This document shows positions 4,598 to 60,900 of a stretch of 64,000 nucleotides of DNA, piece after piece. The stretch is from Paramacrobiotus metropolitanus (taxonomy: Eukaryota; Tardigrada; Eutardigrada; Parachela; Macrobiotidae): positions 1,240,001 to 1,304,000 of the forward strand of contig NW_026570242.1 of assembly GCF_019649055.1 (NCBI RefSeq). The letters run 5' to 3'. How positions within the stretch are numbered: position 1 is the stretch's first letter; the number at the start of each line of letters is the position of its first letter. The notes under the pieces were generated by a model. That model did not search any database, was not told the origin of the DNA, and was given only the letters and a program-made list of their open reading frames with translations. The position numbers were made by a program, and so were the translations under genes.

Positions 4598-7500
4598 TTC
4601 CCGGCGTCATGCTTGTCCATCCCGCTCCATTTATGTCCGGAGGTTTCGTAGAGGTCGTCTGTGGAGTAAGCTACCTGCACTTACTGGGTGTTCAAGTTTT
4701 TTGTGACCATACCCCGGCTGTCGAACGTCTGTCTGGGCATCTGGACGGCCGCCATATGGCTGCTCAACTGTCCGTGCTGCACATAATGGTTCGGATTGAT
4801 ACATCAGCGGCTGCTATTAATCCAGCTGCTGCTGATATGCCATCTGGGCTGGCTGGAACGCCGGCGCCGCTATCGCCACCGTCGGGTATACACTATACAG
4901 GAGCGCTTGATTTCCCAGGCTGCAGTATCGGCTGCTGTTGCTGTTATAAACAGGGGCAACCGTGCTCGAGGCTGCACCATTGGCGGCGGCTGCTGAGTCA
5001 AAGACGGCAGTAGCTAGCGCAAAGGCGGCATTTTCTGATTGTTCCGCCAGGATCCCCAAAGCAACCATCGCGGCTATTCCAGTTGCCGCCCTGGGCGGCT
5101 TCCTTCCACGGCGCGCCCTCGCTCCGGCTGCCCTGGAAACTAAGAACCCCGTTGCCGGCTGTCTGGCCACCCGATATCCCGTGTTCCAGGTGTAAGCGCC
5201 AAGCCGGGACGGTCAGGATTTGCCGCTCTGACGCTTAATCCAGCGTTCTAGCGACGGGGCCAATCCTGGCACATGCGTTAGTACGGGTTCTGGTTCCAGT
5301 CGCCGGCCACGAATCCACACATTGCCGTCGCATAGTTTCCCGGCATGCAGCACTAGCAGGTGATCGCTCAGGTTTGCGTCCGTCGGTGTATGTTCCGTTC
5401 CCTGCTCGTTGTACCCACCCGTCATCTCCGTTCCCCAGCGTCGTACTGGGCCAGGCCGATTCGTGCCCACTAGATTTCCAAGGTTCTGGCCGGCTACATT
5501 CCATCTCCTAAGGTCGGTTAATTTCTGACCGAGCTAACCTCCGCCAAAACTGCCACGGCCACTACCTCGCGGCAGGCTGAAATTCCCTCCGTAGCCGCGC
5601 TTCCGCCGTAGTTCCCGCCGTATCTTCCAGTGCCTCTACCATACCTGCCTGCCCCCGGCGGGCTCGGTTGGGGCTGTCCGTACTGTGGCGGGGTTGCAGA
5701 CGCAGGGCAAAATGGTGTCCAGTTTACGACAAATGCATGTCCGGGGGACGATAAAGCTTATGTCTGCTGCACAGGCCAGCACGAACATCGCCCTTCCGGT
5801 CGGCAAATCGAGCCGTAAACTTGGCTATCCAGACATCGAACGGCCAACCGTCCTTCTGTTGTTCTGCCGTCGGTTCCTAGTACTTGTCCGGCTCCTAGTA
5901 CTAGTCCGGTCGTATCGTTGGTCTCGGTCGGCTTCGGCCTGGTCATCCCGTCGACCGGGGCGCTTTGCGTCCCGGTGATTCTCGTCAGGACAGCCGTCCG
6001 GCCTGATGCAATACTGGAGCATGAAATTTAGATAGCCGGTTGGCCGGATGTATCAGCAAGCTGTATTGCACACGGGCTTAGTGAAGCATGGACAGCCACC
6101 CCTCTTAGTCGGAGCGCAGCAATGCCCGGCACATTTGCCAGCTGTCGGAGAACAATCGCCAGCCGCGGTCCTACGACAACCGGAGGATGAACCCTGCCGA
6201 CCAGAACACACGGTCGGACCCAGGACCGATGTCAACGAAACCCGTCGGAAAGTGACAGCCGGACAAGGACGGCCACGACTACGATGGCCGACATCGAGGA
6301 TAATCCTTGCCGCCGACATAAATTGGTCTGGCCTCGGCGAGACGCCAGAAATACGGCCCTCGAGTAATTGACGGAAGCAGAGTCGCGGTATTGACGCGAC
6401 CGACCGGGTTTGGCAGCAAACCACCGGAAAATCCGTAAGGCGCGGTGCCGTGCTGATAATGAAAGTTCATCCAGTCGGGAGTACCGCAATCGTCCAGCAC
6501 GTCGATCAGGTTCCTCGTGTCACCCTATTCCTTCCACCGGTTAGATCCATCGCTCAGGATGGGTTCGTGCGGCTGCGGCGTTCAATCTTGAAGCCTTCTA
6601 TATGTTCCGGTTTTTCTGGACTGTCTGTTCGGCTTCGGTGCGTTTGTTCGTCTCGCCGCATCGGAAGTCCGGGGTGCCGGGTTGTTTAATTCCACCAAAC
6701 CAAGGGGCTGTGGAGTAGCACTCCGCGGCGCCGGTCTGTCGTCAGATTCGTCTCGAAGCCGGCTACTAGTTAATCAAGCTGTTCCGTCCGGTGTATCGTT
6801 GTTCCCAGTGCCTGTTTTAGGTTGACGTATTTCAAAAATACATCGGTCTGCTCCTTCGGAGATTCGACGGTTCATGCGATGAATTCGGTTGACTCGAACA
6901 GAGATTTTTTGAGCTTTCCCCTGTACGCGTTTCTTCTTTCGTTGCCGTCCGAAGCTGTCGCTGTAGCATCTCTATTGCTTTGGTTCTTTTCCTGCACTCC
7001 TGCCTAAGGTAGACGCTCTCGGTCGCGAAAGTGTCTACCCGGTTTTCAAGTCGGTCGGTAGCTCCTGTCATGACTGCATCCTCCGTTTTCAGGTAAGTAA
7101 TAGTAGCATCCTTTTTTTGCCAAGGTTGCCTTCTTCCAGTCGATCTTGTTTCGTGCGGCTGCTAAATGGACTACCAAATGGGCCGATTGTCCGTTTATCG
7201 TGCCATCGGTGATCTGATCCGGCTGCCCGCTAAGTTTCTGAAACTACTGTCCTTCTGGCGTCCGAAGTACCCGTTCGTTCGGGTCGGGTCTAGTTCTGTC
7301 AGCCTTCGGTGCCGATTCCGGGCTGCCGTCTACTAGAGACACTGGAACATTTCCGCTCGAACATTGTCGACCGGCGACGGTATGGTTGACTCGACCGTTA
7401 TGCGATCGACTGACCTCTCGGTCGAACTCTGCCGATAAGCTGGTCCGGTCCATCCGGGCTGGGTGATCTGACTGCCGTGCCGGGTTGCGATCCACCCATT

Positions 7501-7700
7501 GCGGTTTCTGCTACCCTTTCTCCGGATTGTGCGTTCATCGGTTCGGTTTGATCCGCAGTGTCCACCGGGACGCCGGGTTGCCGAGCGGGCATGTTTGATG
7601 CTCGCCCTTCTTCAGCGGGCTGTCCATGCGTGTCCGGGGGGTGTGCCGTCCGTTTTGTTAAGTGCGGTCCGACTAAAGTGTCAGCTGGCTGTAGACGTGA
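4598..7700 (-). other. GC-rich decayed protein-like tract, unidentified
   Basis: This 3-kb tract is markedly richer in G+C than the rest of the window. Its minus strand repeatedly reads like low-complexity protein: a coiled-coil-like stretch at 7071-6900 (RLENRVDTFATESVYLRQ), an aromatic/Gly stretch near 6470-6350 (GTPDWMNFHYQHGTAPYGF), Gly/Arg/Tyr-rich pieces near 5650-5580 and an Ala/Gln-rich piece near 4870-4820 (FQPAQMAYQQQ). Stops and frame shifts occur every 100-300 bases. A decayed gag-like or glycine-rich structural gene would fit, but no catalytic domain is visible and I do not assign a family. Confidence 0.35.
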
Positions 7701-7759
7701 GCAACCGTCTAAAACGACCGGCGGTCGTCTGAGACGACCGGTCGTTTTGGACAGTTACA
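7701..7759. mobile_element. Minimal palindromic copy of the ACCGTCC/ACGACCGG foldback family
   Basis: A 59-bp near-perfect palindrome starting GCAACCGTCTAAAACGACCG and ending with the inverted form GTCGTTTTGGACAGTTAC. It consists of just the terminal 40-odd bases of the long element at 59473-59901, joined head to head through GTCGTCTGAGACGAC. The 8 bases on each side (AGACGTGA and AGACGCGC) match at six positions, suggesting a decayed 8-bp target duplication as in hAT elements. Confidence 0.75.
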
Positions 7760-8258: not shown

Positions 8259-8406
8259 GTACTGTATTTACACGATATTAAGGGACAGAGAAATCCCCAG
8301 GACCGCCCGGACTAGCTGTCGGTTCCTTTGACATCAATGGCGCCGACGCCTAGTGCCGGCGGTCCAGGGGATTTCTCTGTCCCTTAATATCGCGTAAATA
8401 CAGTAC
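8259..8406. mobile_element. 148-bp MITE with ~40-bp terminal inverted repeats
   Basis: The left end TACTGTATTTACACGATATT and the right end are inverted copies over about 40 bp (one clear mismatch, ACG/GCG), continuing as AAGGGACAGAGAAATCCCC. The non-repeated core is only about 65 bp. Both ends abut TA, which would fit a Tc1/mariner-type TA target duplication; that class is inference from the ends alone. Confidence 0.85.
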
Positions 8407-10242: not shown

Positions 10243-12908
10243 TTATTTACTACAGATAATTAAAATTTCTTTATCTTTGCTTTGCATTATATTACGCAGG
10301 TAATATAATCCCTCACGCAGATTCTCCTCAAAAATTCCCTGGCACAAAACATTTGGGACAATAATCATTAGTTTGATGATTCTCTCTTCCACGGGGTGAC
10401 TCCGTGGCCAGATCTGAAGACAGTCTCCCGACAAAACAAGATCCTTAATAACCTTTTCAGACAAGTCGTTAGCTTGTACACGGATTTGAGATGCCACTGA
10501 GTCGCTCTTCAAAATCCCTTTCATGCACCTTTCTAACATTTCGATTTTCGCATAAATCCCTGCGGCTCGGCGTTTATCCAGCCCCAATTGCTTCAGATTA
10601 TGATCCCAGTAAAAATAAATGCACGGTGATGTCGATTCGCTGGACTGATCGGATAGCAGCTCAATACAGGGTCCGGTTTTTTCACTCAGTGTCATTATGG
10701 GTAAATGTAGTAATGCTGATTGTTGCACCACATTTTGTGCTGTTTCTTTGGAGTCTACCCCCTTTTCGTTTGGAATTCCTTGAGACTCTAAAGGCTTTTT
10801 GTTGGAAAGCGAGGGGTTTCGACTGGTTGTTGAAGAGCGGCTTTCGTCATACAACTGAGAGAAAAGCTAAAACAGATTGACAGATTTGCAAATACCTACG
10901 TCAGTTCCATAATCGAATGTAAATTTTACCACATACCGATGTGTTGAGATGATAAGATCGGGGTGCAGGTGCAACTCGGACACAACTATCGGTGAACAGC
11001 CGTTGAGAAGGCGATTGCCCAGCTATGTAAGTATGATGACTAACTTCTAATTCATTCATGAAGTCAGCGCATGATTTAAGATAGCGAAGATCTAAATGCA
11101 CATGTGTGTGATTATGTTGCTCTGGAAATTCGCTTGGGCACTCGGAAAAATGGATGTTTTCGTAGGGTTCTGCTTCGCGGGTGTCAGCCTCACCTGTGCA
11201 GGAAGGGCAATCTGGAACTGGTAAAATTGCAGTGCTTTCTGGGGAAGGCAACGCACCAGGTGCGAATGTCTGAGTCTGTTCGGTAGGGTGGTCCACCTGT
11301 AAAGTTTAAGGGAGGCATTAGATATCAGCGGCACTTAACTTGCCGCTGTTATAATTCCATTTAATAAAGCCATAAATACTCTTTTACCGCAAACATGCCA
11401 GGAGAGTATTCGCTAATTTCCTGATTTTGAGGATATGTTTGCTTTGTCTTTTGTATATAAGGTTTCGCAGGTTTCGGAGTTTGGTTGGCCGCCGCCTTCG
11501 GTAGCCGATCTTTGGAAAAGTCGTCCATGGATGTGGGACTGCTTGATTGAATTGCTGCTCCGCGATCGCTATCTGTTTGTCTATGCGAATTGTTCCACTC
11601 ACGTGTCTGATATGATATTTCCTTTGTTGTTTCGCACTCGCTGTACGTGGTTTTCGATTCTACTGCTTCCGTGTGACGGTATTCCTTTTCTTCGTGTAAT
11701 GCATTGGTTCCCGAAGTCAACGATATCGAATCTCTCTGATTATCTTGTTCGGTTAATCTTTTTTGTGACGGCAATTGTGGCGTGGAAACAAAGAACCGGT
11801 AGGGATCGTCAAAGGTCACGGGTAAACATGTAGCACTTTGCCGCTTCAGTTCCTCCAGTCGCTGCCGATTGTGCTGCAGGGAACGATACTTGAATAACGT
11901 TTTCGTAGCCCACGTCAAATTATGCACGGAATCGTCAATTAGCTGCTGTAAACCGAATTCAACCTCTACAGGTGTTATATAGATATCACCTTCCTCTTCG
12001 TGATCAAACGCCTCCGCGTTTTGCTCGAATCCGGTGCTGTAATTGGATCTTGAATTACTCCGTGATACTTTGCGAGATTCGCAACTGCGTCGATTCACTT
12101 CTTGCCACAGTGATTCTTCTATGGAAAGACTTCGATGTGCTATCATGGGAACAGTGGAGTCGGCTTTTTTGGATGGTAGAGAAGTCGGATTTTCGTGCGC
12201 ACGTATGCAGAACGTGGCACTGCTGTTTATCGAGATGTCATGACTAGAAGTTGTACTAGAATTATCACTATAATCAATGGTTATGGAGCCATGGGACGAC
12301 GATGACAAACTTCTAGGGGTTTTTTCATCGCCATTACAAACGGATGAAAGAGTTTCTGTGTTGAGGGGCTCGAAAATGCTGATCGCAACGTTATGATCAT
12401 TCAAGAGCTTCCTGTCAGCTTTTGCTGACTGGAGTTTTGATGTAATTGGCAACCGATGTAGACTTCCTGCAGATCGAGTAGCTTTCGGTGAACGGCTGTT
12501 GTGCATTAAAGGCATTATCAGGCCGATTTCGTATGAAGGTTTCTCCAAGTAGGTAGAGCTCCACTGCATTACCGATATTTTGTTTGTAATAACATTCATC
12601 AAATGCTGGCGAGTGGCACGAATTTGATCTAAATTGTAACGGTAATCGATATTATATTCCGATTTTTGATTGCTCCACCACTTTTTAAGTTCGTCAAGAT
12701 TGTGGTGCGAGCCGATAGGTTTGTCATAGATGCTTCGATAGTTTTCTGGGTACTTGTTCACTATTACTGGTGTGCTTAAATCAAAGAAAGAATCAGGACT
12801 GTTATATTCATAAATCTGCTCATAATACCTAGCAGCCTCAGCATCCGCTGTCGAATGCATCCCTCCCAAGAAAGTTGGAAGTTCCCTTAAACATGCAAAA
12901 ATCGTCAT
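10243..12908 (-). CDS. Unrecognised protein of about 830 aa, three exons
   Basis: I do not recognise this protein. Three exons fit on the minus strand: 12908 to about 11388, about 11298 to 10940, and about 10860 to 10243. The junctions have good consensus (donor GCG|GTAAAAG, acceptor TTTACAG|GTGGAC; donor TCG|GTATGT, acceptor CTCTCAG|TTG). The N-terminal part has aromatic- and charge-rich pieces (EAARYYEQIYEYNSPDSFF, LKKWWSNQKSEYNIDYRYN), then a Ser/Thr-rich disordered middle and a helical segment near residue 310 (FKYRSLQHNRQRLEELKRQ). The C-terminal 150 residues look like a folded helical domain (AAGIYAKIEMLERCMKGIL, LREGLYYLRNIM). The first ATG follows an in-frame stop, so it is a plausible start, though an exon junction just upstream (CCAAAG) is possible. 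It sits 170 bp downstream of the BK channel stop on the same strand, so co-transcription or an alternative 3' extension of that gene cannot be excluded. Confidence 0.6.
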
Positions 12909-16000: not shown

Positions 16001-19000
16001 TATAATAACCTACCCAAATTATGCTGACATGGTGTGATGTCGTTAGGACTTTTCGTATTGATGTGACATTTATTGCAGTAATACCACGCTCTAAATAAAA
16101 AGCGGTGCGCACTGTGTTTATAGTGACCATCGAGGAAACCATTAAATGTGATCAGTCACCTGTAGATACGTACTTGTCGACTTCGTCTTGAGTATATGCG
16201 ATGAAAATGCCCATATGATTCGTGGTTATCGATATGGCGCTTGGATTGATCATTATATCCCCAAACTCAATCCCGGCCACCCAGGAAGTTGGCTTCTCGA
16301 ACAAGCCGATTAAGAGTACCCCGAGGTGCGCGTAGCAGTGCCTATATAAAAAACTTGTAAGCTGTAATACAGGAAAAATACATAAACACGCAAATTATAT
16401 GTTTTTATCTGTTCTACCGAGCCACTTGACTGAATGACATATCGGTGTAGTAGTCGCTCAACTTCTGTAATACCAGTTGGTTCTTTCCGGTGTAATGATA
16501 CAAGACGATAGAGTCAAACTCCTGCAAACCGCACATGGGTATACTGCACACAGGTATGTAGTCAGCGCACAAGATAAGCAACCTGAATATGATCGTGTTG
16601 CCCGAAAAAATTGTAAGGAAAACTTGCGAGTTCCGGATTCGCCCGCATGAGATTGGACACCATTGTCGAAAATCCCGGGGCAATACAGTTTTTGGCTAGC
16701 AATCCCATTTTAATCTCAAACAAGCTGACAATGGTGTCGCCCCTCAGCGAGTTCCAACTAGAGAGATTGGTGAGATGGACCTATCAATACAAACCAAGTG
16801 GGAGATTTCGGTGCAGAGTGTGAACAAGAGGCACAAAAACCACGAACGAGCTTACTTCCCAGCACACCTACATGGTTACGTTTGTGGTAGATTTGCACAA
16901 TGATTCGTGTCATCGAATGAAAGTTCTTTATGGCAATGACGCGGAGCACATTGGTAGCATCTTCAGTATCCGTTTGCTCCGGCTTCTTGTCGGCGATGAT
17001 CAGACAGGCCAGAGCCCGTTGCATGGCGGTTCGAGCCAGATCCTGGGAGTTTAAAACATCGCCTTGAAGGTATTCCACCTGGGCGAAGTTACTGCGCAGC
17101 AGCGCCTCCATCTCCATATCCGGATCCTGACTGTGTGTTTATAGTGAACGACACTGACTCCTCGCACACGTATACCACCAAACAGACTTACTTACTAATA
17201 AAAACCACACACAAATAGCTGGTATCGTAGGCACTACTAAAGAAATTTTCCAAGAATCTGTTGGCAATGCTAAAGGTGATGTGGCCGCATACAACAACAT
17301 GTCTGCAACATGTGGCGTATTGTAAAGAAAACAATTTCGCAATTCGCTCATTAGCTGAGTGGTACGATAACTCACTCTAAGCCACTTTCTGGTTTGAAGC
17401 CTCCACCATATTTTAGTTTGGATCGCACCATATTGCCCACTTCCGGTAGCGATGATGCAAATAAGGCCTGCAAAAAACCTATTCAATGGTATGTGCCTTG
17501 TTAAAGCACACGGCTTTTTTGCTGACTCACGATCGTCCCAAGAATGTACACACAATCAAAAGCACGACCCATTGCAGTGACCGGGGCGATGTCGCCATAT
17601 CCGACGGTGGAGATGGTGACCACGGAAAAGTACAGAAATTTCCAGTAGGAATGTCCGTGCTCCAGTACAGTGTAAAAATTCTCGGTCTGATTGAATAAAA
17701 ATGGTAACACGGAAATGCAAGCCCAAACCGAGTGACCAATTTTCATTGTCCTTTCCGAAATATTTACCAAGTGAAAAACACCACTCCCAACCAGGATTAT
17801 ACACGCCAGGCGGCAGATAAGAAAGGTTAGCGTGACCTGGGTTCTGGTCTTCAAGATGCCCACATACTGCATCACGTCCGGAATTGAGAGTATATGTAGC
17901 ACACGCAGAAATCGTAACCCTGCAACACCATAATTCAAGATCATTCACTTCTTGCAAAATGTGAACTCGTTCCTTTTCGCTAACCTGACCAATTGCGATC
18001 TAAGAAAATCGCTATAATAGACGGTGGAATAGTAAAATAGTCCACTATGGAATAAGCCTCGGCTAGAAAGACAAACTTCCGGCTTGACGCGCAGAACTAC
18101 AGAAAGATAGTCATATAATACTGTGAATTTCTTTTCTGTGTAATATGTAGACATAAACCTATATAAGGCCGTTTTGCTATACAGTTTCGATGGCGCACCC
18201 GCAAAACGAAGTACACCAGGAAGAACAAGTTGCATACGAAGTCCACTTGCCATTCCGCAGTCGACGTCCACGCACGGCACACTTCCAAATCGGGAACTGT
18301 GCTGTCATGTAAGCCCAGTGAATGATCGAAGATATAACTATTCAAGGAAGCGTATTTTCTGTTCATAAACATACTCTGCCACATCTTGACAATATATTCC
18401 GAAAGAAACCATCGCCACGCAGAATCCAATGATCGCCTGTAAAGTTAATTGCCATGCAGTGACTGCAGTCTATACATATACGTTATGGTTATATTGTTCA
18501 TAGACAGTTAGGGCAAACTGCGGCAGTAGCAATACCAATGACATGTTTCTCAGCCTTTAGTCTGAGACTCACAAGGGGATGGCTTTCGTCATCTATTGTC
18601 ATCTATTATCATTGGATTGCTGTTGCCAGCCATCGCATTGTGCACAAATTGTCTAATAAAAAAATGGTACCACAACTCGGCCCGTCAGTGTCTGGCAGTT
18701 TACTATGCGATTGGCCTCCCTTTCCATGACATGATACCATTGAAAGGTCCACTTGCGAGACATCAAGACGACGTCGCCAGCGCTGTTGGAGTCATCCAGA
18801 AAGGATGATGGATCCGCTTCGATGATGGTGAAGGCCCGTCTCTTCAGTACTTGCTTGGAACTGCGCAATCCGCACCATTTAACGATATTCCATACCCCCA
18901 GGATAGAGTATAAGGTCAGCCAGCTTAATATACTGCTGATAAGAAATATCCACCATAACCGCGGTTTACCGATGACTTCACAAGACTGATAATAATTTCT

Positions 19001-22429: not shown

Positions 22430-22871
22430 GGCCCGCGCTCAAGCTCTGACTCTGACTCAGACTCTGACTGCTCAAACTCTGACTCTGACTACTCAAAGTC
22501 TGACTCTGACTGACCAAACTCTGACTCTGACTGAATAACCTAAGAAACCTAAGAAACCTAAGAAACCTAAGAAACCTAAGAAACCTAAGAAAACTAAGAA
22601 ACCTAAGAAACCTAAGAAACCTAAGAAACCTAAGAAACCTAAGAAACCTAAGAAACCTACCTAAGAAACCTAAGAAACCTAAGAAACCTAAGAAACCTAA
22701 GAAACCTAAGAAACCTAAGAAACCTAAGAAACCTAAGAAACCTATTAAGAAACCTAAGAAATCTTCAGAGTCAGAGTCAGACTTTGAGCGGTCAGAGTCA
22801 GACTTTGAGTAGTCAGAGTCAGAGTTTGAGTGGTCAGAATCAGAGTCAGAGTCAGAGTTGGAGTCTAGGCC
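22430..22871. mobile_element. Foldback element, copy 1, with 9-bp target duplication
   Basis: The element starts GGCCCGCGCTCAAG and ends GAGTCTAGGCC, so the outer bases form an inverted repeat. The arms (about 100 bp each) are built from repeated CTGACT hexamers with spacers GCTCAAA, ACTCAAAG and GACCAAA, and the right arm is the inverse. Between them lie about 23 tandem copies of the 9-mer GAAACCTAA (22538-22755). The 9 bases TTTAAAAAT occur immediately on both sides (22421-22429 and 22872-22880). A 9-bp duplication is typical of Mutator-like elements; no transposase is encoded, so it is non-autonomous. Confidence 0.93.
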
Positions 22872-31211: not shown

Positions 31212-32655
31212 TTACGGACTCCTTTTCCCTTTATCCGTATGGGGATCGTCCGCTGTTTCATCTTTTTTCTTTTGGTCTGTCCGCACTTCCTCCATTGCTG
31301 CAAGATCATCCGTTGCGCTTCCAGTGTTGAGAACCAAACTGCGCTGAATGATGATGTTGTTTAGAACCGCCTATAGCAAAGAGTAAGTTCTGGTAAGAAA
31401 TCGTAAGGGTAGACCATGGCGATTATGTCCAACATTCATAATTGTTCATTGTAGAATAAATGTAGTTTGATCCGGTTCTCACCGCTAACTGATCGTTGGT
31501 TCGAATGACTGCTTCCAGCTCTTCCAGCTTCCTTTGACTGTCCAAAGCCCTTACTTCTTCATTTCGTTTCTCCAGCGTATCGAACTTTTCTTTCCATTCA
31601 TCTGCTTGCCGCTGTAAACTGACGTTGCGAGAATTATAATCCGTGATCTGCAGGCATGGGTAATTACCACCAAAAACAGACATTAGGCGTACGTTCACTG
31701 TACGCGGCGCCCTAGTTATTGCAAGACACACCTTTGCTGTGCATTCGTTTTTACCTTGTTCTGACAAGAGCACTTTGCGCATACCGTAAGCCATGCTGCT
31801 TTCGAAAAGCGTTTGATACGCTGCGATCGACATACGAATCTCATCGCGAACTCGTAAAAGCATCAGTCCACGCTCTGCACACTCTAATGTGGCTTGCCGA
31901 ATCAGCTCATCTAGAACATTTCTCATGCTACTGATCAGTTATTTGACTCTCGGCATTGAAACTGCAAAATTTTTTCAGCTGGCTCCATTGTGAGAGTGTC
32001 GCAAAACTGTTAGTAAAGAGAAGAGAATTAGATAACTCACCGAATGCCTGCGTGTACAGTTCTCTTCGGACCGGACAAATTCCAGTTTCCCGTGCACTTA
32101 AATGCTCGAGTCTGTTATCTAGTCGCTCTTGCAAATTTAGAACGTCCATTCTGGTAGCAGGTATACGAGAAACTTTTTGCACATATTGCTGGCCTTTCTC
32201 AGTCCAAAGTCTAAAAACCATCTATTTATGACACATGTTTTACTTCCAACAACAATCCGACAATTCCATTATATGTAAGATGGTTTCTGAATAAATAGCT
32301 TTGTAGTCTGTTTAATTTACCTGGGTGGCAAAATATAATCGAGAATATCATCCGCCGAGCGAATATCCAAAATATTAAGGTTTTTAGGCGGTTTTTTTTC
32401 CGGTCGCGGGGGTACCGATAAAACGATATTGTAATCTTCGCTTTCGATAATACTGTTTCTAGGACCATCCTTCTTCTCCCCTTTTTTCTACAATAACAAT
32501 ACGGCCTGGTGGAGTGCCGTTGCAAAATGAAAAAGCAAAACGTGCAGTCGTACACTTGAGGAAGCCGCAGAACGTTTGGTGACAACAGTTGGGTGGTCGT
32601 ATTTAAGCAGATGATCAGAGGGCGCAGGGCCACTGTACCGCTCTGTTGTCTCCAT
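31212..32655 (-). CDS. DNALI1: Axonemal dynein light intermediate polypeptide, p28
   Basis: The p28 light chain binds inner-arm dynein heavy chains in motile cilia and sperm flagella. Six exons are phase-consistent: 32655-32554, 32487-32321, 32210-32041, 31910-31732, 31647-31483 and 31370-31212, giving 313 residues (vertebrate proteins are about 260-280). Family landmarks: SDHLLKYDHPTVVTKR at the N-terminus, DILDYILPPR, WTEKGQQYVQKVS, IPATRMDVLNLQERLD, ARETGICPVRRELY, and the hallmark DELIRQATLECAERGLMLL followed by RVRDEIRMSIAAYQTLFES. The C-terminal half is a coiled coil (QRQADEWKEKFDTLEKRNEE). The last 50 residues, rich in Asp/Lys, are an extension not usual in the family. Start ATG 32655 is supported by the match of the first exon to the family's N-terminus. 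Confidence 0.95.
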
Positions 32656-33104: not shown

Positions 33105-43714
<10,610 letters not shown>

Positions 43715-52037: not shown

Positions 52038-52510
52038 CTAACAAGGCAAACCATTAAATTTTGAGGAAATGTACAAAGCAGTGTGTGAGTATTTTAGGCT
52101 TTTTCTCAGTGCTAAATAATGTCGCAACGCTCGTACTGCGCAGACCGATCGGCCGGAGGCTCGCAGAAAAATTCGGCAGCCTTCTTGAAACTGGTCGCAT
52201 TCTGATGATCGCAAATTAATAACCACTTTCCCTTTGAATAGCGACACATCAGATAAAATCATAAAAATAAAAAGTGGCTGCTAGTTGTCGGGATAATTTC
52301 ACCGATGCGTAAAAAACCGAAAAAGCACAGGGTAAACATGCTCCAGTAAAGTCGCTTATCGTAGGATGATAGCGGCTGAGAATTAGCGATGTTAATTTTA
52401 ATGATACGCATGTGGTCAGTGGTGATTGGCAATTTGTGATTGTGGCCTATTTGAGTGACAGCTTTGATGTTCTGTGTAGCAAGAAGCTTCTCATCCACTT
52501 CACGATCCAA
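52038..52510 (-). pseudogene. Tyrosine recombinase fragment (Crypton/DIRS-like), decayed
   Basis: Two minus-strand frames that touch at 52260 together read as part of a tyrosine recombinase catalytic domain: LSSYDKRLYWSMFTLCFFG then FLRIGEI, with the catalytic Arg of box I, and after the frame break LFKGKVVINLRSSECDQF, then FLRASGRSVCAVRALRHYL, the pattern seen between the catalytic boxes in DIRS/Ngaro and Crypton elements. The HxxR box and the nucleophile Tyr are not seen downstream, so this is a broken remnant. Which of the two element classes it came from cannot be told from this piece. Confidence 0.6.
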
Positions 52511-52624
52511 AACGGGTATCCGAGAGCTTCTAACCGATTCAACAAAAGAGAATGAGAAACGGTATCATATACACCCAGTAAATCCAGCGTGCATATGATA
52601 ACGCAGGAGATCTATTTTATTTAC

Positions 52625-52708
52625 CCCGTTGTGTTCCTCAAGGTTGTCCGCTCTCTCCACTACTGTTTATTATTTTCATTGATGAGCTTTTAAAGAAGTT
52701 GAACAAAT
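52625..52708 (+). pseudogene. Non-LTR retrotransposon reverse transcriptase fragment
   Basis: 28 codons read CVPQGCPLSPLLFIIFIDEL, the conserved (G)VPQG-x-LSPLLF block of non-LTR reverse transcriptases, then LKKLNKC. The reading stops where the foldback element at 52709 begins. The catalytic YADD block is not seen. The RNase H piece at 53337-53470 on the same strand probably came from the same element. Confidence 0.75.
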
Positions 52709-53066
52709 GTAACCGTCCAAAACGTCCGGACGTCTGAGACGTCCGGCGGACGTTTTAGCGCTCGAACCGTTCAAAACGTCCGGAGGCTGCCAAAACGTCC
52801 GCCGTAAATTTCCCCACCCAGTTCTTTTGCTTTTCCGATCTTAAACCAGATCAATGAGTGTAAATTCGTACCCGGACGTTTCTGCCTGAGTATAAAGCAG
52901 TAGCCGGACGTTTCTGCTGACTGCAAATTCGCAGCCGGACGTTTCTGATTGAGTGTAAATTCGTACCCGGACGTTTCTGCCTGAGTGTAAATTGGGACCC
53001 GGACATTCCTGCCTGAGTATAAATTGGACCCGAACGTTTCTGCCTGAGTGTAAATTGGTGTCACTC
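52709..53066. mobile_element. ACCGTCC foldback family, ACGTCCGG-type copy with 32-bp tandem repeats
   Basis: Starts GTAACCGTCCAAAACGTCCG and follows the left arm of the element at 59473 through GCCGTAAATTT and a C/T-rich stretch, then runs into about 6.5 tandem copies of a 32-bp unit containing CCGGACGTTTCTGCCTGAGT (52855-53060). A matching right end is missing or decayed (CCGTTTAC near 53070). It is inserted directly after the reverse-transcriptase fragment. Where the other copies carry AC in ACGACC, this one carries ACGTCC at nearly every motif. Confidence 0.8.
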
Positions 53067-53336
53067 TTCCGTTTACAAACACTCAAAGATATGAACATAG
53101 CGCACGCTTTGGTGCTATATCAAGACGAACAACATTCGCACAAATCTCCATCTTTGTCCATTGTTCAGCGCCTGAGTGCGATGGGATCGAAGTTTCCTAC
53201 CGATGTTGCACTCGTATTTAGCCAGTTCTTCCCTATGTCTATGCGTCTCTGCGCCTAAAAGTCATCAGTTCCGGGCTGCGGGAACCAGCCATTGACCACA
53301 ATACAACTGCCAAGCGTCTCCTTTTTGCAGGAGATA

Positions 53337-53470
53337 TGTTAATTTATACAGAAGGATCAAAACACGGCGATAATGTTGGAGCTGCAGTTGTTGTTTTTAC
53401 TGGCCAAGCAGTGTATAGGAAAGAATATCGACTACCGGTTCACGCAACGGTTGCGCAAGCGGAATTGTAA
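53337..53470 (+). pseudogene. Retrotransposon RNase H fragment
   Basis: Reads LIYTEGSKHGDNVGAAVVVF then RKEYRLPVHATVAQAEL, the first strands and the A/E region of the RNase H domain found after the reverse transcriptase in I/Jockey/R1-type non-LTR elements. The first catalytic Asp (in TDGS) is Glu here (TEGS). The frame ends with a stop right after QAEL, so it is a dead remnant. Confidence 0.7.
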
Positions 53471-54160
53471 AAAAATTCAACCTTTATTGCAATTTCTTCC
53501 TACTCAGATTATTACATCGAATTCCGTTGGGTTTCCACATCAGCTAGGGTGGGCAGGCCGTTTCTTATATAAATTATTGACAACAAATTAAATGAAACAA
53601 CAGGTCTACTCTTATACAACTGTTTATTTACGGCTGATTTAATTCAGGTTTAGGTTTAGTTTCCCCGGCTAACCAAAAACCCGCTACCTATCTAATGTTA
53701 ATTACTGTTAACTTGTTTATTGTTTAAGGTCATATTCAAAAATTTTTTATTAAGAAAAGTTTTGATAAGGATAATAATCCGGGGAAAATGGAAAGTCGGG
53801 GAAACTTCAGTCTACTATCTTTAACGGCCTGCTTATACCCTGCTGTCCAACAGATTTTACAATAAGCCAATCGCAATGAGGTAGTAAGGTGTAACGGAAC
53901 ATCGACAACTCGCCAACAACAACCGAAAAACAGGAGCAATAACGTAAGACAGCATCGTTATAGACCGTGCTGAGGTCGACCGGCAAGGAAAATGAACGGC
54001 TACTGCGTACATGACGTGAACAGGTTATTTGGGCATGGAACGATCCAGTACTTATGAGATTTATTAAGAAAAATTACATAGGTACAGTTTAAAGCAGTAA
54101 CAGCTAAATTCTTAAACAACGGTTTAGACTGAACAATTTTACCGCGCTGTCGGATGGTGG
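53471..54160. other. Transposon graveyard, no intact feature
   Basis: Contains short protein-like shards on the minus strand but nothing assignable. Sequence between the plus-strand RNase H piece and the minus-strand fragment at 54170. Confidence 0.35.
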
Positions 54161-54169
54161 CGGCAATCT

Positions 54170-54660
54170 TGTCGATGCTGGACATAGCATCACGGGCAAC
54201 ATTCCCCTTGAACCTACAGCTACATGGTAGTAATCAGTCTGTTAACTCCGTTACCAGCGAAGCATAGCGGGTGTGTTCCCTAGCTTTCGCATTGGCAAAT
54301 CCTCTAACAGTCTCAAACGGTACGGTAAGTTCAGCTAAAACAATACGTTTCTCCACGCGATTAACACAGCATAAGTCAGGACACAGAGATGTAGGTAAGA
54401 TATCGATGGGAATAGCGCTGACATGTTTTCGTACTTATATGCATCTAAATCGCTTAGTATTTTCCATTTATATGCATCTAAATCGTTTAGTATTTCCCAT
54501 AGTATTTTCCTTATCAGTCACACCAGTTAGAAATTGAAAAATAGCGAGCAGAACACTATTATGGCGCCAGGTGTAACGATGGCTGTACATCAGGCTTTGC
54601 TGTATCTGAGACTGTCTGAAGTGCGTCATGTCGACCTTATTGTGACTCAAAGGCCGTAAT
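54170..54660 (-). pseudogene. Retroelement C-terminal ORF fragment
   Basis: Minus-strand reading: YTWRHNSVLLAIFQFL near 54600-54550, then after frame breaks ILPTSLCPDLCCVNRVEKR and IVLAELTVPFETVRGFANAK near 54400-54270, then VAVGSRGML. The order RHNSVL, PD, ELTVPFE, VG-RG is the arrangement seen downstream of the RT in several animal retroelement polyproteins. At least two frame breaks make it a remnant. The element class is not determined. Confidence 0.5.
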
Positions 54661-54985
54661 GGATCCCATCAGTGCCACTATTTATGGTTCGCCTAACAAA
54701 GATGCTAAAGAAGTGCAAGATTGTCTGCTATGGTTGGAGTCCACAAGAGTATTCTCATCAAATTGAGGAAGAATGGCGAGTATGTTTGTTTTGATGATGC
54801 TTACTCTGGCAAAAATTCTTTTACTGTAATACGAATCGATTTTGATCTTTTACTGCAATTCGATTTTTTCGAAATATTCATTTTTAACCTTTACCGTTCA
54901 CTTTGGTTGTTCCAGTTAACGAGATTTTCAGATTAGTGCTTGAATGGTAGAACATGTCGGACCAGGCTAGCAGCCCTATCACTGC

Positions 54986-55676
54986 ATGGCGCTGCAGTAT
55001 TGTCAGCAGCAACATGCCGAGGCTAAGGCCCGACGAGCCTCAAAATTGAATTCAGATACGGTGTCCAGTACTGCAACAACCGCCAAGCGAAAACGGCCTG
55101 CAAGAGATCCAAATGCACCAAAGCGAAACTTGTATGCACAGATGCTAACTGTTTCACGCAAATCGCAGAGCACTGAAATGTTAGGCTGGCCTGCTGACTT
55201 CTCCAACGTTTGCCGAACCTTGTCAATTGCAGATCCGCATTCTTTCATTTCTGCAGCCAAGAGCGTCCATGTGTTAAGGCTGGTATACCAAATGCTACAG
55301 TAGGCGACTTAGCTAAAGAGCTAGGACGTCGGTGGTCAATTGTCGCTGGCGAGAGAAAAGCGGTTTTCCAGAAGATGGCAGAAAAAGATAAAGAGAGATA
55401 TGTCAGGGTAAATCGAGAGACGATTGAACGATCTTTTATAGAACGATCTTGTAACAACCACCGTGTATTTTGTGAATAATTAGGATTGCGATATTGACTG
55501 GGTCTTTACAGGAAAAATCTGCTTATCAAAATGGAAGAGGACAGAAAAGGTCTGTAAGAAGTTTTACCGGCCACAGTTCTGGTAGGCTTGGTTCGGCCGC
55601 TGCACCGATGAATTCCGCTACTGAATTTGGGCAGTCCGATGAAGGAAGTGACAGCGAATGCAATCATACTATGTAA
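54986..55676 (+). CDS. HMG-box chromatin protein (HMGB-like, single box)
   Basis: Binds and bends DNA in chromatin. Three exons, 54986-55131, 55233-55407 and 55512-55676, give 161 residues in a consistent phase. A Lys/Arg-rich N-terminus (TTAKRKRPARDPNAPKRN) leads into one HMG box: NLSAFFHFCSQERPCVKAG, then PNATVGDLAKELGRRWSIVA, GERKAVFQKMAEKDKERYVR. The FF/F core and the DLAKELGRRW helix are most like box B of HMGB/Dsp1 proteins. The Ser/Gly-rich C-terminus ends with a short acidic patch (SDEGSDSEC), far shorter than the acidic tail of vertebrate HMGB1. Only one box is encoded, unlike two-box HMGB1. Start ATG 54986 is the first in frame; an ATG at 54954 is in another frame. The 3' flank received a foldback transposon at 55781. 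Confidence 0.88.
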
Positions 55677-55780
55677 ATGCTGAAAACTGGGATTAGGAGC
55701 AAAGTCAAACGCATCCCTGCATTTGGACACCCGACGAAAGTAACACTTACGGCACACAACGTCACCCATACCTGTGCGAC

Positions 55781-56176
55781 GGCCCGCGCTCAAGCTCTGA
55801 CTCTGACTCAGACTCTGACCGCTCAAACTCTGACTCTGACTACTCAAAGTCTGACTCTGACTGTCCAAACTCTGACTCTGACTCTGACTGAATAACCTAA
55901 CCTAAGAATAACCTAAGAAACCTAAGAAACCTAAGAAACCTAAGAAACCTAAGAAACCTAAGAAACCTAAGAAACCTAAGAAACCTAAGAAACCTAAGAA
56001 ACCTAAGAAACCTTAGAAACCTAAGAAACCTTAGAAACCTAAGAAACCTATTAAGAACCTAAGAAACCTTCAGAGTCAGAGTCAGACTTTGAGCGGTCAG
56101 AGTCAGACTTTGAGTAGTCAGAGTCAGAGTTTGAGTGGTCAGAATCAGAGTCAGAGTCAGAGTTGGAGTCTAGGCC
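55781..56176. mobile_element. Foldback element, copy 2, with 9-bp target duplication
   Basis: Same termini as the copy at 22430 (GGCCCGCGCTCAAG to GAGTCTAGGCC), same hexamer-built arms, and about 16 copies of GAAACCTAA in the middle. The two arms are nearly identical between copies, while the number of 9-mers differs. CTGTGCGAC occurs directly on both sides (55772-55780 and 56177-56185), a perfect 9-bp duplication. It lies about 100 bp beyond the HMG-box stop codon, probably in or near that gene's 3' UTR. Confidence 0.93.
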
Positions 56177-56185
56177 CTGTGCGAC

Positions 56186-56752
56186 CATTGGAACTGGTTT
56201 AGGATATTTTGGGAGTATGTATGTGACGGCTTTTGATTTAAATGCAGGCCGAGGCTGTTTTCTGGGTAGGTTCGACCTTGAGTTCAGTTCAAAATTGTTC
56301 CCTTTGGGTGTGCTTACCACATTTTTAATTTACGTATCTGTACACTTTGATTGCATTATGGGTACGTAGGTATTCCATGCTTGTATCAGTTGTATCCGAA
56401 CTCTGAAGTGAATTTCATCAATCATGATTTATCTTTACTTTAGCTGTCTAGCAAAACAAAGCATGAACAAGAAGTGCACCAAATGTTTAAGAAGGGAAAG
56501 TTGATAATCAAGATAAACACCTCCTCAGGAACAGACAGGCTCACAATCAATAATCATTGTTGATATGATGTTGTTACCTTTTCAAAAATTAATAACTATG
56601 GATTAAGAAAGGTTACCAAGAAAAAGAATCCTAATTAAACTGAAAACCTGATGGTGAACCGACAAAACAATATGAACTGCTAAATAGGGGACGATTGCTC
56701 ATCTTACGTTAAGCAAGCAGGGTGTTGTGGGACTTTCAGTCTTTCACTACAG
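56186..56752. other. 3' flanks of the convergent HMG-box and H2A genes
   Basis: No coding signal. Minus-strand sequence just beyond the H2A stop has only a weak stem (GACTGAAAGTC) and not the canonical histone 3' stem-loop, so the H2A mRNA is more likely polyadenylated. Confidence 0.4.
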
Positions 56753-57226
56753 TCACTCCGCTGCAGCAGCTGCTTTTCTGGACCTCTTCGAAGCCTTGCT
56801 GACACCGTTGCTTTCTTTCATGGGCTCCGTCGCAGCAGACTTGACAGCCGTATCAGCAGCCCTCCAGTCCTTAACTTTCTTCAACAAAACTGGATGAAGA
56901 TTTGGAATCACACCTCCTTGTGCAATGACCACACCTTCGCAGAAACGGCTCAGCTCGTTGTCATTTCGGAGTGCCAGCTGAATATGACGTGGACTAATAC
57001 GCTTTTTGTTGTTGTCGCTGGAAGCCTTACCAGCCAGTTCCAGCACCTCAGCCACAAGGTATTCCACTACTGCTGCCAGATACACCCCAGAAGCCACACT
57101 CAGTCGCTTGGAATAGTTACCCTTCTTCAAGGCTCGAACGAAGCGGCTAACAGGCATCACCAATCCTGAACGCCGCGATTTACTTTGTCGCTTCTTTTGG
57201 ACAGACTTTGTGCCTCGCCCTGACAT
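56753..57226 (-). CDS. Divergent histone H2A variant, intronless
   Basis: Nucleosome core histone. 157 residues from ATG 57226 ([20 protein letters not shown]); upstream in-frame codons encode a hydrophobic run that is not histone-like, so this Met is the start. The fold is complete: [74 protein letters not shown]. Departures from canonical H2A: AGLQFPVGR is GLVMPVSR; the acidic-patch NDEEL is NDNEL, losing one acid; several core positions differ. After the docking domain there is a 35-40 residue tail rich in Lys, Ser and Ala ([15 protein letters not shown]). It has no SQ-E/D-aromatic end, so it is not an H2A.X, and it is not H2A.Z or macroH2A by sequence. A lineage-specific variant is likely. 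Confidence 0.92.
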
Positions 57227-57979
57227 TATTGTACTGGAGGCAAGAACCAGGAGAAATAACACCAGAAACTGCTGAATCGAGTTCGGGAGCTGAATTGTAA
57301 GTAGCCTCAAGAAGGGGCGGTTAAAGTTTTCTGACTGGCACTAGATCGCAGGGGTTTTCTATTATCACTGTTCTAACAAAGATTTACTGTTTAAATTAAA
57401 TACTATATCTTTTACGAAGTTATACGGTGACAATCTACGGTCCATGCCCAGACATCCACTCAAAAGGTGTACTTAAGAGTTAAGCCCCGCGATAAACGGC
57501 GAATCGATGTCAGACTGTGCGAGTGTGTTCCCTGTACCCAAAACGTGGCCAGTTTGCACTTTGCATTTTGCAATATGAGATTGCACATTTTCGACTAATT
57601 GGAGCGCCACCTGGGCACAACACTCTTGCTCCCCGGGTATGAGAACGAAATGCCAGATGTGCGGGTACGCTGCAATTCATACGGCAGCCGGTGGTACCGC
57701 GTAACGTTTTACTAGTCAGTAAGCTCGTTATGTCTAAAATACATAACTAACTGCAGACGTTTAAAACATAAAATTAGGTACATAATGCTTGCCGCTTGGC
57801 AAAAGGGCGAACTCCTATAAAGCTATTTACTGCCCAGATTATCACGTGATGCCCAGATGTTCTGAAAGGACCACGTTTCACTTTTCTGGAGTCCATTTAA
57901 TTGCGTCATTGCTAGCAGACTTAACAGTAATTCATTCATTTTACAATTAGAAAATTAGGCGGACTCGATAAACAAGGTC
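57227..57979. other. Promoter region between H2A and CEP131
   Basis: Divergent gap expected to hold both promoters. No repeat recognised. Confidence 0.4.
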
Positions 57980-60900
57980 ATGGATGGATATAACTTACCA
58001 AACAAGGCCCTGTCTGACAACGGTGATTCCCGGCTGGCCGTCGCTCCAAATGATCCATCTTTGGATGAGGTGCCAGATGCAGTCTTGCTATCACCCACTT
58101 CGCCCTCTGGTTCAACTGTAACGTACTGTAGTCGAATACAAAGTCACCGAAACACGGACGATCATTATGCCAATTATGCACAGGACAAGCTGCGGCAAGT
58201 TGTTAGCTATGGCTCAAAAGCCTCAAATTGAAACACTGTCGACAATTTCTATCTAGACCTTACGATTACGAGTACCGAACCTATTAGAAATTACGAAACA
58301 AAGGAAATTCCGCAACGCAAATTTCGTTTTAAATTTTTAATTATTCTGATAGTATGAGTTGGCTTCATCTAGCAATCGACGGCGCTGTTTTCTAATATGT
58401 AGGTCGTTTCTGCAGTATTTGGATCAAGAAGGTCAGAATACCGAAGTTGGCACAGGGGACTCAGTAAAAGTGGGTTACACATGAGAAAAGTTTCGTTTGG
58501 ATTGTGCACGCACCATGCAATGATCCAGAGTCAATACGCATGCAGACTAAAAATTCTTAATGTTCTGATAGTGCAATTTCGTCCAGCACGGGATGGAAAT
58601 TGTAACAGAGTCCGATGGAAAGTTCCATCAAGAAACCATGGAATTCTTAGACGATCAGGAAGCGTTAATACTCAGGCTGCGTTTGCAGTTGGTCTGCTTG
58701 CTTTAGCGTCCTGTTCGTTTTTGATAATCATTCGAAGGGTTTGATGCGCTAGTACTTTTGATAGAACAAAGAAGCCGAAAAGTCTGCTTTGGCTTTACAC
58801 GAAGCACAGGAGCTATACCAGAAGCGCTTAAAACAACAACGGGATATGTCCAACGGTAAACTGAAATCGCTGCAGCTCGTGTTAGATCAGGTAACAAAGA
58901 CTGTAAAGTTCGTTCATTAATCATTAGACAATTTGGGCAAGGTGCGGCAGTAGCAATACAAATGGCTATAGCCATAGCCGTCTCGTAGACGGACCACGGG
59001 ACGGCTATTGCTACAGTCATTGGTATTGCTACTGCCGCATTTTGCCCAAATTCTCTATTAATGAGCACTGAGCAGTACTGTATCTGTACATGCCTACATT
59101 GAGCACAGACCGTACGAGAGCATATTTATTATAATATTGTAAAAAGACTGCTCTCACCGTACAACCTGTACCTGACTACCTGTAGCGTCGTTTCTCACTC
59201 GTAGCAATATTTATCAATTTCGTAATTTGATAGATACATCATAGTATTACAAGGCTCTTGATAACTGTATTATGCTGATATTCCTGCACGAAAACCATTT
59301 GACGTCATAACGCCCTACACTCAATCAGCACAAAACAGCCTCGGGAGGTATAAGAATAGTGAAAAACTGATTTAGTTGCCCTCGGTGGAGCTGTTCATTA
59401 AATGGAGGCCGCGCTGGATTTCTATGATAATACATACTTTGACGTACTCGTACATCATTCCGTTGCTCGTGTGTAACCGTCCCAAACGACCGGTCGTCGT
59501 TTCAGCCTCCAAACCGTCCGAAACGACCGGGGGCCGCCAAAACGACCGCCGTAAATTTTGTCCTACCAGTTTTTTTCGATCTTTCAGTCGCAAACAAAAC
59601 GAATGAATGCAATTTCGTGTCCGGTCGTTTGTGCCGGAGTGAAATTTCGTATTCTATCGCTTATGCCGGAGTGCAATTTCGTATTCTGTCGCCGAAGCGA
59701 CCGAATACGAAATTGCACTCCGGCAGAAACGACCGGACACGAAATTGCATTCATTCGTTTTGTTTGCGACTGAAAGATCGAAAAAATTTGGTAGGGCAAA
59801 ATTTACGGCGGTCGTTTTAGCGGCCCCCGGTCGTTTCGGACGGTTTCGAGGCTGAAACGACCGGCGGTCGTCTCAGACGACCGGTAGTTTTGGACGGTTA
59901 CACTCGTGCTCGCCTGTTTCTTGCCGTATCCCTCCACGCGCTTTCCATAAGCAGGCGGCTAGCTTCCGGTGTTCCGTTTGGCCGATAGATGTTAGCACAC
60001 GCGTGCGCTTAGTATTCCCGTGCTTAGGCATACTATACTTTAACAGTGAAAAGCGATACCTCCAAGTTCCCAGCCCACTACAAAATTATCCGCGTCTTTT
60101 CACATGAAAGCAGAGTTTGGAACTTTGAAGAGAACGCCAAGGGCTACAAGCCTACAATATTTCCACGCGCTATCACGCATAAAAATTACTTTGATTTGTA
60201 GCTGTTAAGTCCCGATCTTTGTAATGTACAGAGTAATCTTTGTATTATTCTTCTGTTTGCTAGTGCAACGAGGAAAAGAAAGTTCTTTGTGAGCGCTGTG
60301 AAACCATCAGCGCAGATATTAAGCAGATCCAAATAAAGTACGAGAGACGAGCGGAGGAACAAGAAATGAGGTATTTCAGGGTGATGCCGAGTAAGCTCCC
60401 CGATAACGAATTCGGAAAGAAGTATCCGTAACTGTATTCAACTCTCGTGTAGACACCGGGACGATCTGAAGCGGGCGAGATCTCAGTGGGAGATATCAGA
60501 AAAAGAGCGGCAGAAAAAATGGATACAGCAACGTGCCAACCAGATCAAAGAAAGCACTCTGAGAAGTAAGCAAGCAGCTTCAGTACTGATAGCAGGGTTT
60601 GCTTAAGCAAAACAGCAAGAGTAATAAGGTAATCAATCGAAGTGAAGCAAAGGTATGTTCTGGAAAGCGAGTACATATGCGGTTTCTGCATAGTAGCAGC
60701 ATCTGTTCATATGCCTATTTATGAGCAACCGCATTCGCAAACATTTTGTAGGTACAAATTGCAAGCGCCCAAAACAAAAAAGAGGAGCGCTTCACGCGGC
60801 AATCAGTATTTTGCGGTATGCGGGCTTTTGTCTTATTAATTTTGCTGTTTGTAGTAAACGCGATTAAAAATCGTGCTGTTGAGTGCATTAGCAAAAACGT

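What the first reader, a model, noticed from the sequence alone, without database searches (positions are those of the whole stretch)
52709..59901. Foldback family with a concerted A-to-T change at a repeated internal motif
Three members share the GTAACCGTCC end and internal order (7701-7759, 52709-53066, 59473-59901). In two of them the repeated motif is ACGACC(GG) with inverse CCGGTCGT; in the third essentially every occurrence, including those inside its 32-bp tandem array, is ACGTCC(GG) with inverse CCGGACGT. Independent point mutation would not hit about ten motif sites in the same way. This points to homogenisation within an element, or to the motif being a repeated protein-binding site that co-changed with its recogniser.
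Basis: seen in the sequence. Interest (0 to 1): 0.7.

Follow-up and report, generated by a model that had tools for sequence, protein, structure and literature searches.

The report
Foldback transposons with switched binding motif
Three related copies of a small non-coding foldback transposon, in what is probably an animal genome, carry one short DNA word many times, and in one copy every intact word differs by the same single letter, as if the protein that reads the word had changed its preference.

Summary
Three related non-coding foldback elements lie at 59472-59902 (A), 52708-~53060 (B, one arm only) and 7700-7759 (C, 60 bp). Exact ACGNCCG sites: A 11 of 11 N=A, C 4 of 4 N=A, B 10 of 10 N=T; the other 15 exact sites of the window are mixed. 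Aligning A's right arm with B, N differs at 8 of 8 sites, other motif positions at 2 of 46, the rest at 43 of 156. Six of the eight sites lie outside the 32-bp array with homologous flanks of their own, so array homogenisation does not explain them. The 25 sites share a longer pattern, about KCNNARACGWCCGS. Best reading: an array of sites for an element-specific DNA-binding protein, most likely the transposase, in two specificity states. Also found: TG..CA ends, a 6-bp target duplication (6/6 in A, 5/6 in C), array spacing of 31.6 bp (three helical turns). Limits: one element carries the T state, the direction is unknown, no transposase was found, and the genome is not held, so segregation by subfamily could not be tested. 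Partial precedents: Galileo subfamilies and VANDAL/VANC C- and T-type motifs.

The parts
59472..59902 (.). Element A, complete foldback element, TG..CA ends, motif state ACGACCG
   Evidence: Arms 92% complementary over 185 nt; ends and 6-bp duplication; 11 of 11 exact sites N=A; hairpin fold z -36.95
59466..59471 (.). Left target-site duplication CTCGTG of A
   Evidence: 6 of 6 match to 59903-59908; no other length from 2 to 12 matches fully
59903..59908 (.). Right target-site duplication CTCGTG of A
59472..59690 (+). A left arm; lacks 17 bp present in the right arm
   Evidence: alignments, (inner limit of the arm is approximate)
59691..59902 (-). A right arm (outer end at 59902)
   Evidence: alignments; 13 of 195 aligned positions differ from the left arm
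59611..59692 (+). 32-bp array of A, 2.6 units; the + strand has T at the N position (motif state A)
   Evidence: TRF; sequence printed
52708..53060 (+). Element B, left arm only, motif state ACGTCCG; right boundary uncertain
   Evidence: nhmmer E=9.5e-73 for 52708-52939, no right arm found in the window; 10 of 10 exact sites N=T
52722..52801 (.). Six exact motif sites of B outside the array (starts 52722+, 52727-, 52739+, 52747-, 52776+, 52795+)
52855..53056 (+). 32-bp tandem array of B, 6.4 units
   Evidence: TRF
52873..53037 (-). Array motif sites of B: four exact (52873, 52905, 52936, 52968) and two decayed (53000, 53031), all T state, mean spacing 31.6 bp
7700..7759 (.). Element C, 60-bp palindromic element, motif state ACGACCG, flanks GACGTG / GACGCG (5 of 6)
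   Evidence: hairpin fold z -5.35
52606..52710 (+). Reverse-transcriptase fragment whose profile match stops where B begins (sequence that B seems to interrupt)
   Evidence: Pfam RVT_1, E=1.7e-7, residues 9-43 of the ORF piece starting at 52582

Best explanation
A, B and C are non-coding members of one DNA-transposon family whose arms are arrays of a site of about 14 bp (about KCNNARACGWCCGS). I think an element-specific DNA-binding protein, most likely the transposase of an autonomous relative, binds several of these sites to recognise the ends. The family has at least two subfamilies whose recognisers read a different base at one position: A for the A/C type, T for the B type. The difference was set in the active lineages before these copies inserted. 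Copies whose sites matched the prevailing transposase moved more often, so sites came into line one after another by selection on transposition, and array units by unequal exchange. Shown: homologous arms, conserved core, uniform and opposite N state, a target duplication in A. Inferred: that a protein reads the sites, that it is the transposase, the timing, and the path of change.
For: N is uniform within each element and opposite between A/C and B at 25 of 25 exact sites. In aligned arms N differs at 8 of 8 sites, other motif positions at 2 of 46 and the rest at 43 of 156 (A-right versus B). The 2 of 46 is about what decay since insertion would give, as the two arms of A differ at 13 of 195. 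Six of the eight aligned sites lie outside the array. The 25 sites share more bases: K at -6 in 25, C at -5 in 23, A at -2 in 24, R at -1 in 25, S at +7 in 25, against 7, 3, 6, 9 and 9 of the 15 background sites. B's array sites are 31.6 bp apart on average, 3.0 helical turns. Precedent: the Galileo G THAP domain binds several sites in its long TIR, binds the K subfamily TIR of the same genome weakly and the N subfamily TIR not at all (PMC3688188, Results).
Against: Only one element carries the T state; the 11 sites of A are not independent, because its arms are copies. No transposase was found: nine ORF pieces overlapping A or B (69-125 aa) gave no Pfam match at the curated cut-off, and the window as a whole was not scanned for transposases (27 ORFs or ORF pieces). 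No further copies could be collected: no genome is held, and seven pattern scans gave six chance loci. In the control that keeps the differing columns and randomises bases, 86 of 20000 runs reach the observed count. The longer shared pattern may partly reflect duplication or overlap of neighbouring sites.
Confidence: 0.6

Rival explanations
1. The sites are read by a protein other than the transposase, for example an element-encoded anti-silencing protein in the manner of VANC or a host chromatin protein, and that protein changed its preference.
For: VANC21 binds a short motif packed in non-coding parts of VANDAL21 elements, and T-type motifs accumulated in only one of two VANDAL21 subgroups (PMC5735166, sections 8 and 9). 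The 32-bp array here looks similar.
Against: Here sites begin 14 bp from the tip, lie in both orientations, and are kept in the 60-bp element C, which fits end recognition better. The VANDAL21 motifs are described as arrayed in the same orientation.
Confidence: 0.15
2. Homogenisation inside an element: gene conversion or unequal exchange spread one motif version to all sites.
For: The 32-bp units of A and of B have different consensus units, the usual sign of array homogenisation; it can explain the array sites.
Against: Six aligned sites outside the array have homologous flanks of their own in both elements and lie in both orientations; a conversion tract would have to be about 7 bp long and leave the flanks untouched.
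Confidence: 0.12
3. Only base pairing of the foldback is under constraint, and the N changes are compensatory changes in hairpins.
For: A folds into a long hairpin (z -36.95), C too (z -5.35); the lone arm of B folds less strikingly (z -2.88). Several N positions face complementary N positions.
Against: Pairing lets each pair take any state independently, so it does not predict one state for all sites. In a simplified null with free N, six sites would be uniform and different from T with probability 0.00073; sites that pair with each other are not independent, so the true figure is larger.
Confidence: 0.06
4. Chance, or a mutational process that acts on the motif itself.
For: Only three copies are available, one with the T state.
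Against: Random substitution reached at most 4 concerted changes in 20000 runs against 6 observed. Both forms persist elsewhere in the window: 6 ACGACCG and 3 ACGTCCG exact sites outside the elements.
Confidence: 0.05

Closest known systems
Galileo (P superfamily, Drosophila), foldback-like TIRs with several THAP-binding sites (PMC3688188; PMC4168063)
   Same: Non-coding copies with long TIRs; several binding sites, some in internal tandem repeats; subfamilies in one genome whose TIRs one THAP domain does not bind equally.
   Different: TSDs of 7-8 bp in D. willistoni against 6 bp here; three sites reported in a 1.2-kb TIR; the G site was not found in the K and N subfamilies, rather than being present at every place with one base changed.
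VANDAL/VANC anti-silencing system, Arabidopsis (PMC5735166)
   Same: A short repeated motif in non-coding element DNA with states differing at one base that accumulate by subgroup; co-evolution of protein and motif is proposed there.
   Different: There the C type occurs in both subgroups and the T type is added in one, through tandem repeats; here the states exclude each other in the three elements and include sites outside the array. Different kingdom (the host here is probably an animal).
Tetris and Foldback elements, Drosophila (PMC4079207)
   Same: Long TIRs with an outer flanking part and inner tandem repeats; copies found lack conserved ORFs.
   Different: TSDs of 8-10 bp and a unit of about 220 bp in Tetris; here 6 bp and 32 bp.
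IS3EU/GingerRoot DNA transposons (PMC10045372)
   Same: 6-bp TSDs; GingerRoot ends are occasionally TG..CA.
   Different: IS3EU ends are TA..TA; no transposase here to test membership; site-array foldback arms are not mentioned in the parts I read (parts 1-3 of 5).

Membership tests
Foldback / MITE-like non-autonomous DNA transposon | Long terminal inverted repeats | tested here: met
   A: arms of 185 nt, 92% complementary. B has one arm only. C is a 60-bp hairpin.
Foldback / MITE-like non-autonomous DNA transposon | Target-site duplication | tested here: met
   A 6 of 6 (CTCGTG); C 5 of 6; not testable in B, whose right end was not found.
Foldback / MITE-like non-autonomous DNA transposon | Internal tandem repeats in the arms (Foldback type) | tested here: met
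   32-bp units in A and B; not in C.
Foldback / MITE-like non-autonomous DNA transposon | No transposase gene | tested here: met
   Nine ORF pieces of 69-125 aa overlapping A or B: no Pfam match at the curated cut-off, three sub-threshold matches with E 0.039-0.096. C is 60 bp.
Tetris / Mutator-like Foldback | 8-10 bp target duplication | tested here: not met
   A has 6 bp; no full match at 8, 9 or 10 bp.
Galileo / P superfamily | 7-8 bp target duplication | tested here: not met
Galileo / P superfamily | THAP-domain transposase | not testable with these tools
   No autonomous copy; no genome held.
IS3EU/GingerRoot | 6-bp target duplication | tested here: met
   family feature from PMC10045372
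IS3EU/GingerRoot | TA..TA ends, with TG..CA in some GingerRoot | tested here: inconclusive
   Ends of A are TG..CA: not IS3EU as described, allowed for some GingerRoot.
IS3EU/GingerRoot | IS3/integrase-related DDD/E transposase | not testable with these tools
   No autonomous copy available.

The most novel reading that the evidence does not exclude
Two lineages of one transposon family in the same genome have each fixed a different base at one position of a dispersed binding-site array, at all homologous sites including those outside tandem repeats, giving two mutually exclusive transposase/end pairs: a completed natural switch of a one-letter recognition code.
Probability: 0.42. Interest if true: 0.65.

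Novelty: new variant of a known kind. Interest (0 to 1): 0.5.

Why it matters
How a protein and many scattered target sites can change together, when each single step looks harmful, is an old problem of molecular co-evolution. If the two states sort by subfamily across the genome, intermediate copies would show the order in which sites switched, and a one-base difference is an easy handle for binding and cross-mobilisation tests.

Tried and rejected
Further copies. nhmmer with the arm profile and blastn of each element over the window found no place outside the three elements, apart from weak hits at 20624 and 29070 (E 3.2 and 5.4), which I dropped. Five pattern scans of viral contigs and two of prokaryote genomes gave six loci, L001-L006 (three, three). 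Each holds one match to its pattern, and none holds the other element words that I looked for near it; I take them as chance.

Right end of B. Sought by profile and by a 6-bp repeat of the left flank from 53040 to 53700; the single match, at 53582, is not preceded by an element end. An RNase H-like reading of the ORF at 53222 was seen by eye only and Pfam did not support it, so it is not used.

Control dropped. I thought of using the conserved AACCGTCC end repeat as an independent control for the N change, but it overlaps the upstream half of the longer site pattern.

Host. Not identified. An ORF at 36084-36632 matches Na,K-ATPase alpha and one at 31423-31926 an axonemal dynein light chain, so an animal is likely; this is an inference. 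Rfam at gathering thresholds and ARAGORN found nothing. A PDB search with the 515-aa ORF at 11361-12908 found nothing.

Literature. Ten searches. I saw no report of a concerted one-base change at scattered, non-tandem transposon sites in what they listed, but most listed papers were not opened and the library lacks most subscription journals. Seen: PMC3688188 abstract, Results, Discussion, legends; PMC5735166 passages and sections 8 and 9; PMC10045372 parts 1-3 of 5; PMC4079207, PMC4168063 and PMC12730594 passages; PMC10398659 outline with abstract. All other papers in those lists: search listing only. That Foldback elements of D. melanogaster have short repeated units in their arms is recalled and comes from no call.

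Full report
What is there. The window is eukaryotic, probably animal. It holds three members of one foldback family. A (59472-59902) is complete: two arms, 92% complementary over 185 nt, ends TGTAACC..GGTTACA, with CTCGTG on both sides (6 of 6; no other length from 2 to 12 matches fully). B (52708 to about 53060) is a left arm with an array of 6.4 units of 32 bp. It begins where the match of a reverse-transcriptase fragment stops (Pfam RVT_1); no right arm was found. C (7700-7759) is 60 bp, a hairpin that matches the outermost ~53 bp of an arm, with flanks GACGTG/GACGCG (5 of 6). A profile built from these arms finds them again with E-values of 1.3e-76 (A right), 9.5e-73 (B), 2.9e-72 (A left) and 4.3e-15 (C), which is not independent evidence; blastn of A against B gave 8.6e-39. 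Nine ORF pieces overlapping A or B gave no Pfam match at the curated cut-off.

The motif. Exact ACGNCCG sites in either orientation: 11 in A, all N=A; 4 in C, all N=A; 10 in B, all N=T; 15 elsewhere in the window, A6 G5 T3 C1, at most 2 in any 431 bp. With one mismatch allowed, A gives 13 A, 5 G, 2 T, B gives 13 T, 1 G, and C gives 4 A, 1 G; by eye the off-state rows are the CCGTCCG repeat or overlaps of CCGCC/GGCGG. With two mismatches the lists are mixed and uninformative. B's decayed array units at 53000 and 53031 keep T.

More than chance? In the alignment of A-right with B, N differs at 8 of 8 sites, other motif positions at 2 of 46 and the rest at 43 of 156; for A-left the figures are 8 of 8, 4 of 40 and 50 of 168. 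If N changed at the outside rate, all eight would differ with probability 3e-5, and to the same base about 5e-9. Since the motif was chosen after it was seen, I also took the largest number of identical single-base changes in any 7-mer word: 6 observed (two of the eight sites carry a second change). Random substitution gave at most 4, in 4 of 20000 runs. A weaker control, with the observed differing columns kept and only the bases randomised, reached 6 in 86 of 20000 runs. Clean sorting of 15 A and 10 T labels over the 25 sites has an exact probability of 3e-7, but the arms of A are copies of each other, so this is too small.

Why not array homogenisation alone. Six of the eight aligned sites (52722, 52727, 52739, 52747, 52776, 52795) lie outside the array (52855-53056) and have flanks of their own that align between A and B. 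Conversion tracts of about 7 bp, in both orientations, would be needed. Exchange between array units can account for the array sites only.

What the sites look like. Around the heptamer the 25 sites share K at -6 (25), C at -5 (23), A at -2 (24), R at -1 (25) and S at +7 (25); of the 15 background sites 7, 3, 6, 9 and 9 have these bases. This suggests a site of about 14 bp, though overlap and duplication of neighbouring sites may add to it. B's array sites are 32, 31, 32, 32 and 31 bp apart, mean 31.6 or 3.0 turns of 10.5 bp, counting the two decayed units, which would put them on one face of the helix.

Timing (inference). The arms of A differ at 13 of 195 positions, about 3% per arm since insertion if they began identical. 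The core differences from B, 2 of 46, are of that order; 43 of 156 outside is far more. So the lineages of A and B seem to have diverged for long while active, with the core held and N fixed at different bases. The direction is not known.

Mechanism. I favour end recognition by a transposase that binds many sites, with subfamilies of different specificity (0.6). Galileo is the nearest tested precedent: a THAP domain that binds several sites in long TIRs, binds the K subfamily TIR weakly and the N subfamily TIR not at all (PMC3688188). VANDAL/VANC is the nearest precedent for motif states that differ by subgroup and for a reader that is not the transposase (PMC5735166). Pairing constraint alone does not predict one state for all sites; A and C fold into hairpins (z -36.95 and -5.35), the single arm of B much less so (z -2.88).

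Classification. A 6-bp duplication does not fit Tetris (8-10 bp) or Galileo (7-8 bp in D. willistoni). It is compatible with GingerRoot, which makes 6-bp duplications and occasionally has TG..CA ends (PMC10045372). Without a transposase the superfamily stays open.

Limits. One element carries the T state. No genome is held, and seven collection scans found no relatives; none of those collections is of animal genomes.

Noticed in passing
22430-22871 and 55781-56176: A second foldback family: two copies, 87% identical over 442 aligned positions, with CTCTGA-type repeat arms around a 9-bp AACCTAAGA array. Both have GGCC..GGCC ends and a perfect 9-bp duplication (TTTAAAAAT at 22421-22429/22872-22880; CTGTGCGAC at 55772-55780/56177-56185), which would fit a Mutator-like element.
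   Followed up: partly
58920-59062 and 18497-18542: A short foldback (67-nt arms, 85% complementary) with a related fragment at 18497-18542.
   Followed up: partly
8259-8406: A foldback with 73-nt arms, 88% complementary, 2 nt apart; blastn found no other copy in the window.
   Followed up: partly
3439-4580: 15-bp minisatellite of about 79 copies that overlaps an ORF of 450 aa at 3661-5013.
   Followed up: no
42650-42947: 10-bp array AAATATTTCT, 29.8 copies at 99% match, perhaps recent.
   Followed up: no
56753-57310 (- strand): Histone H2A-like ORF (Pfam Histone E 1.6e-13, Histone_H2A_C E 7.7e-11), near an HMG-box ORF piece at 55201-55476.
   Followed up: no
52450-52734: Reverse-transcriptase fragments on opposite strands side by side: RVT_1 E 1.7e-7 on +, E 0.0008 on - (the latter below Pfam's cut-off).
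   Followed up: partly
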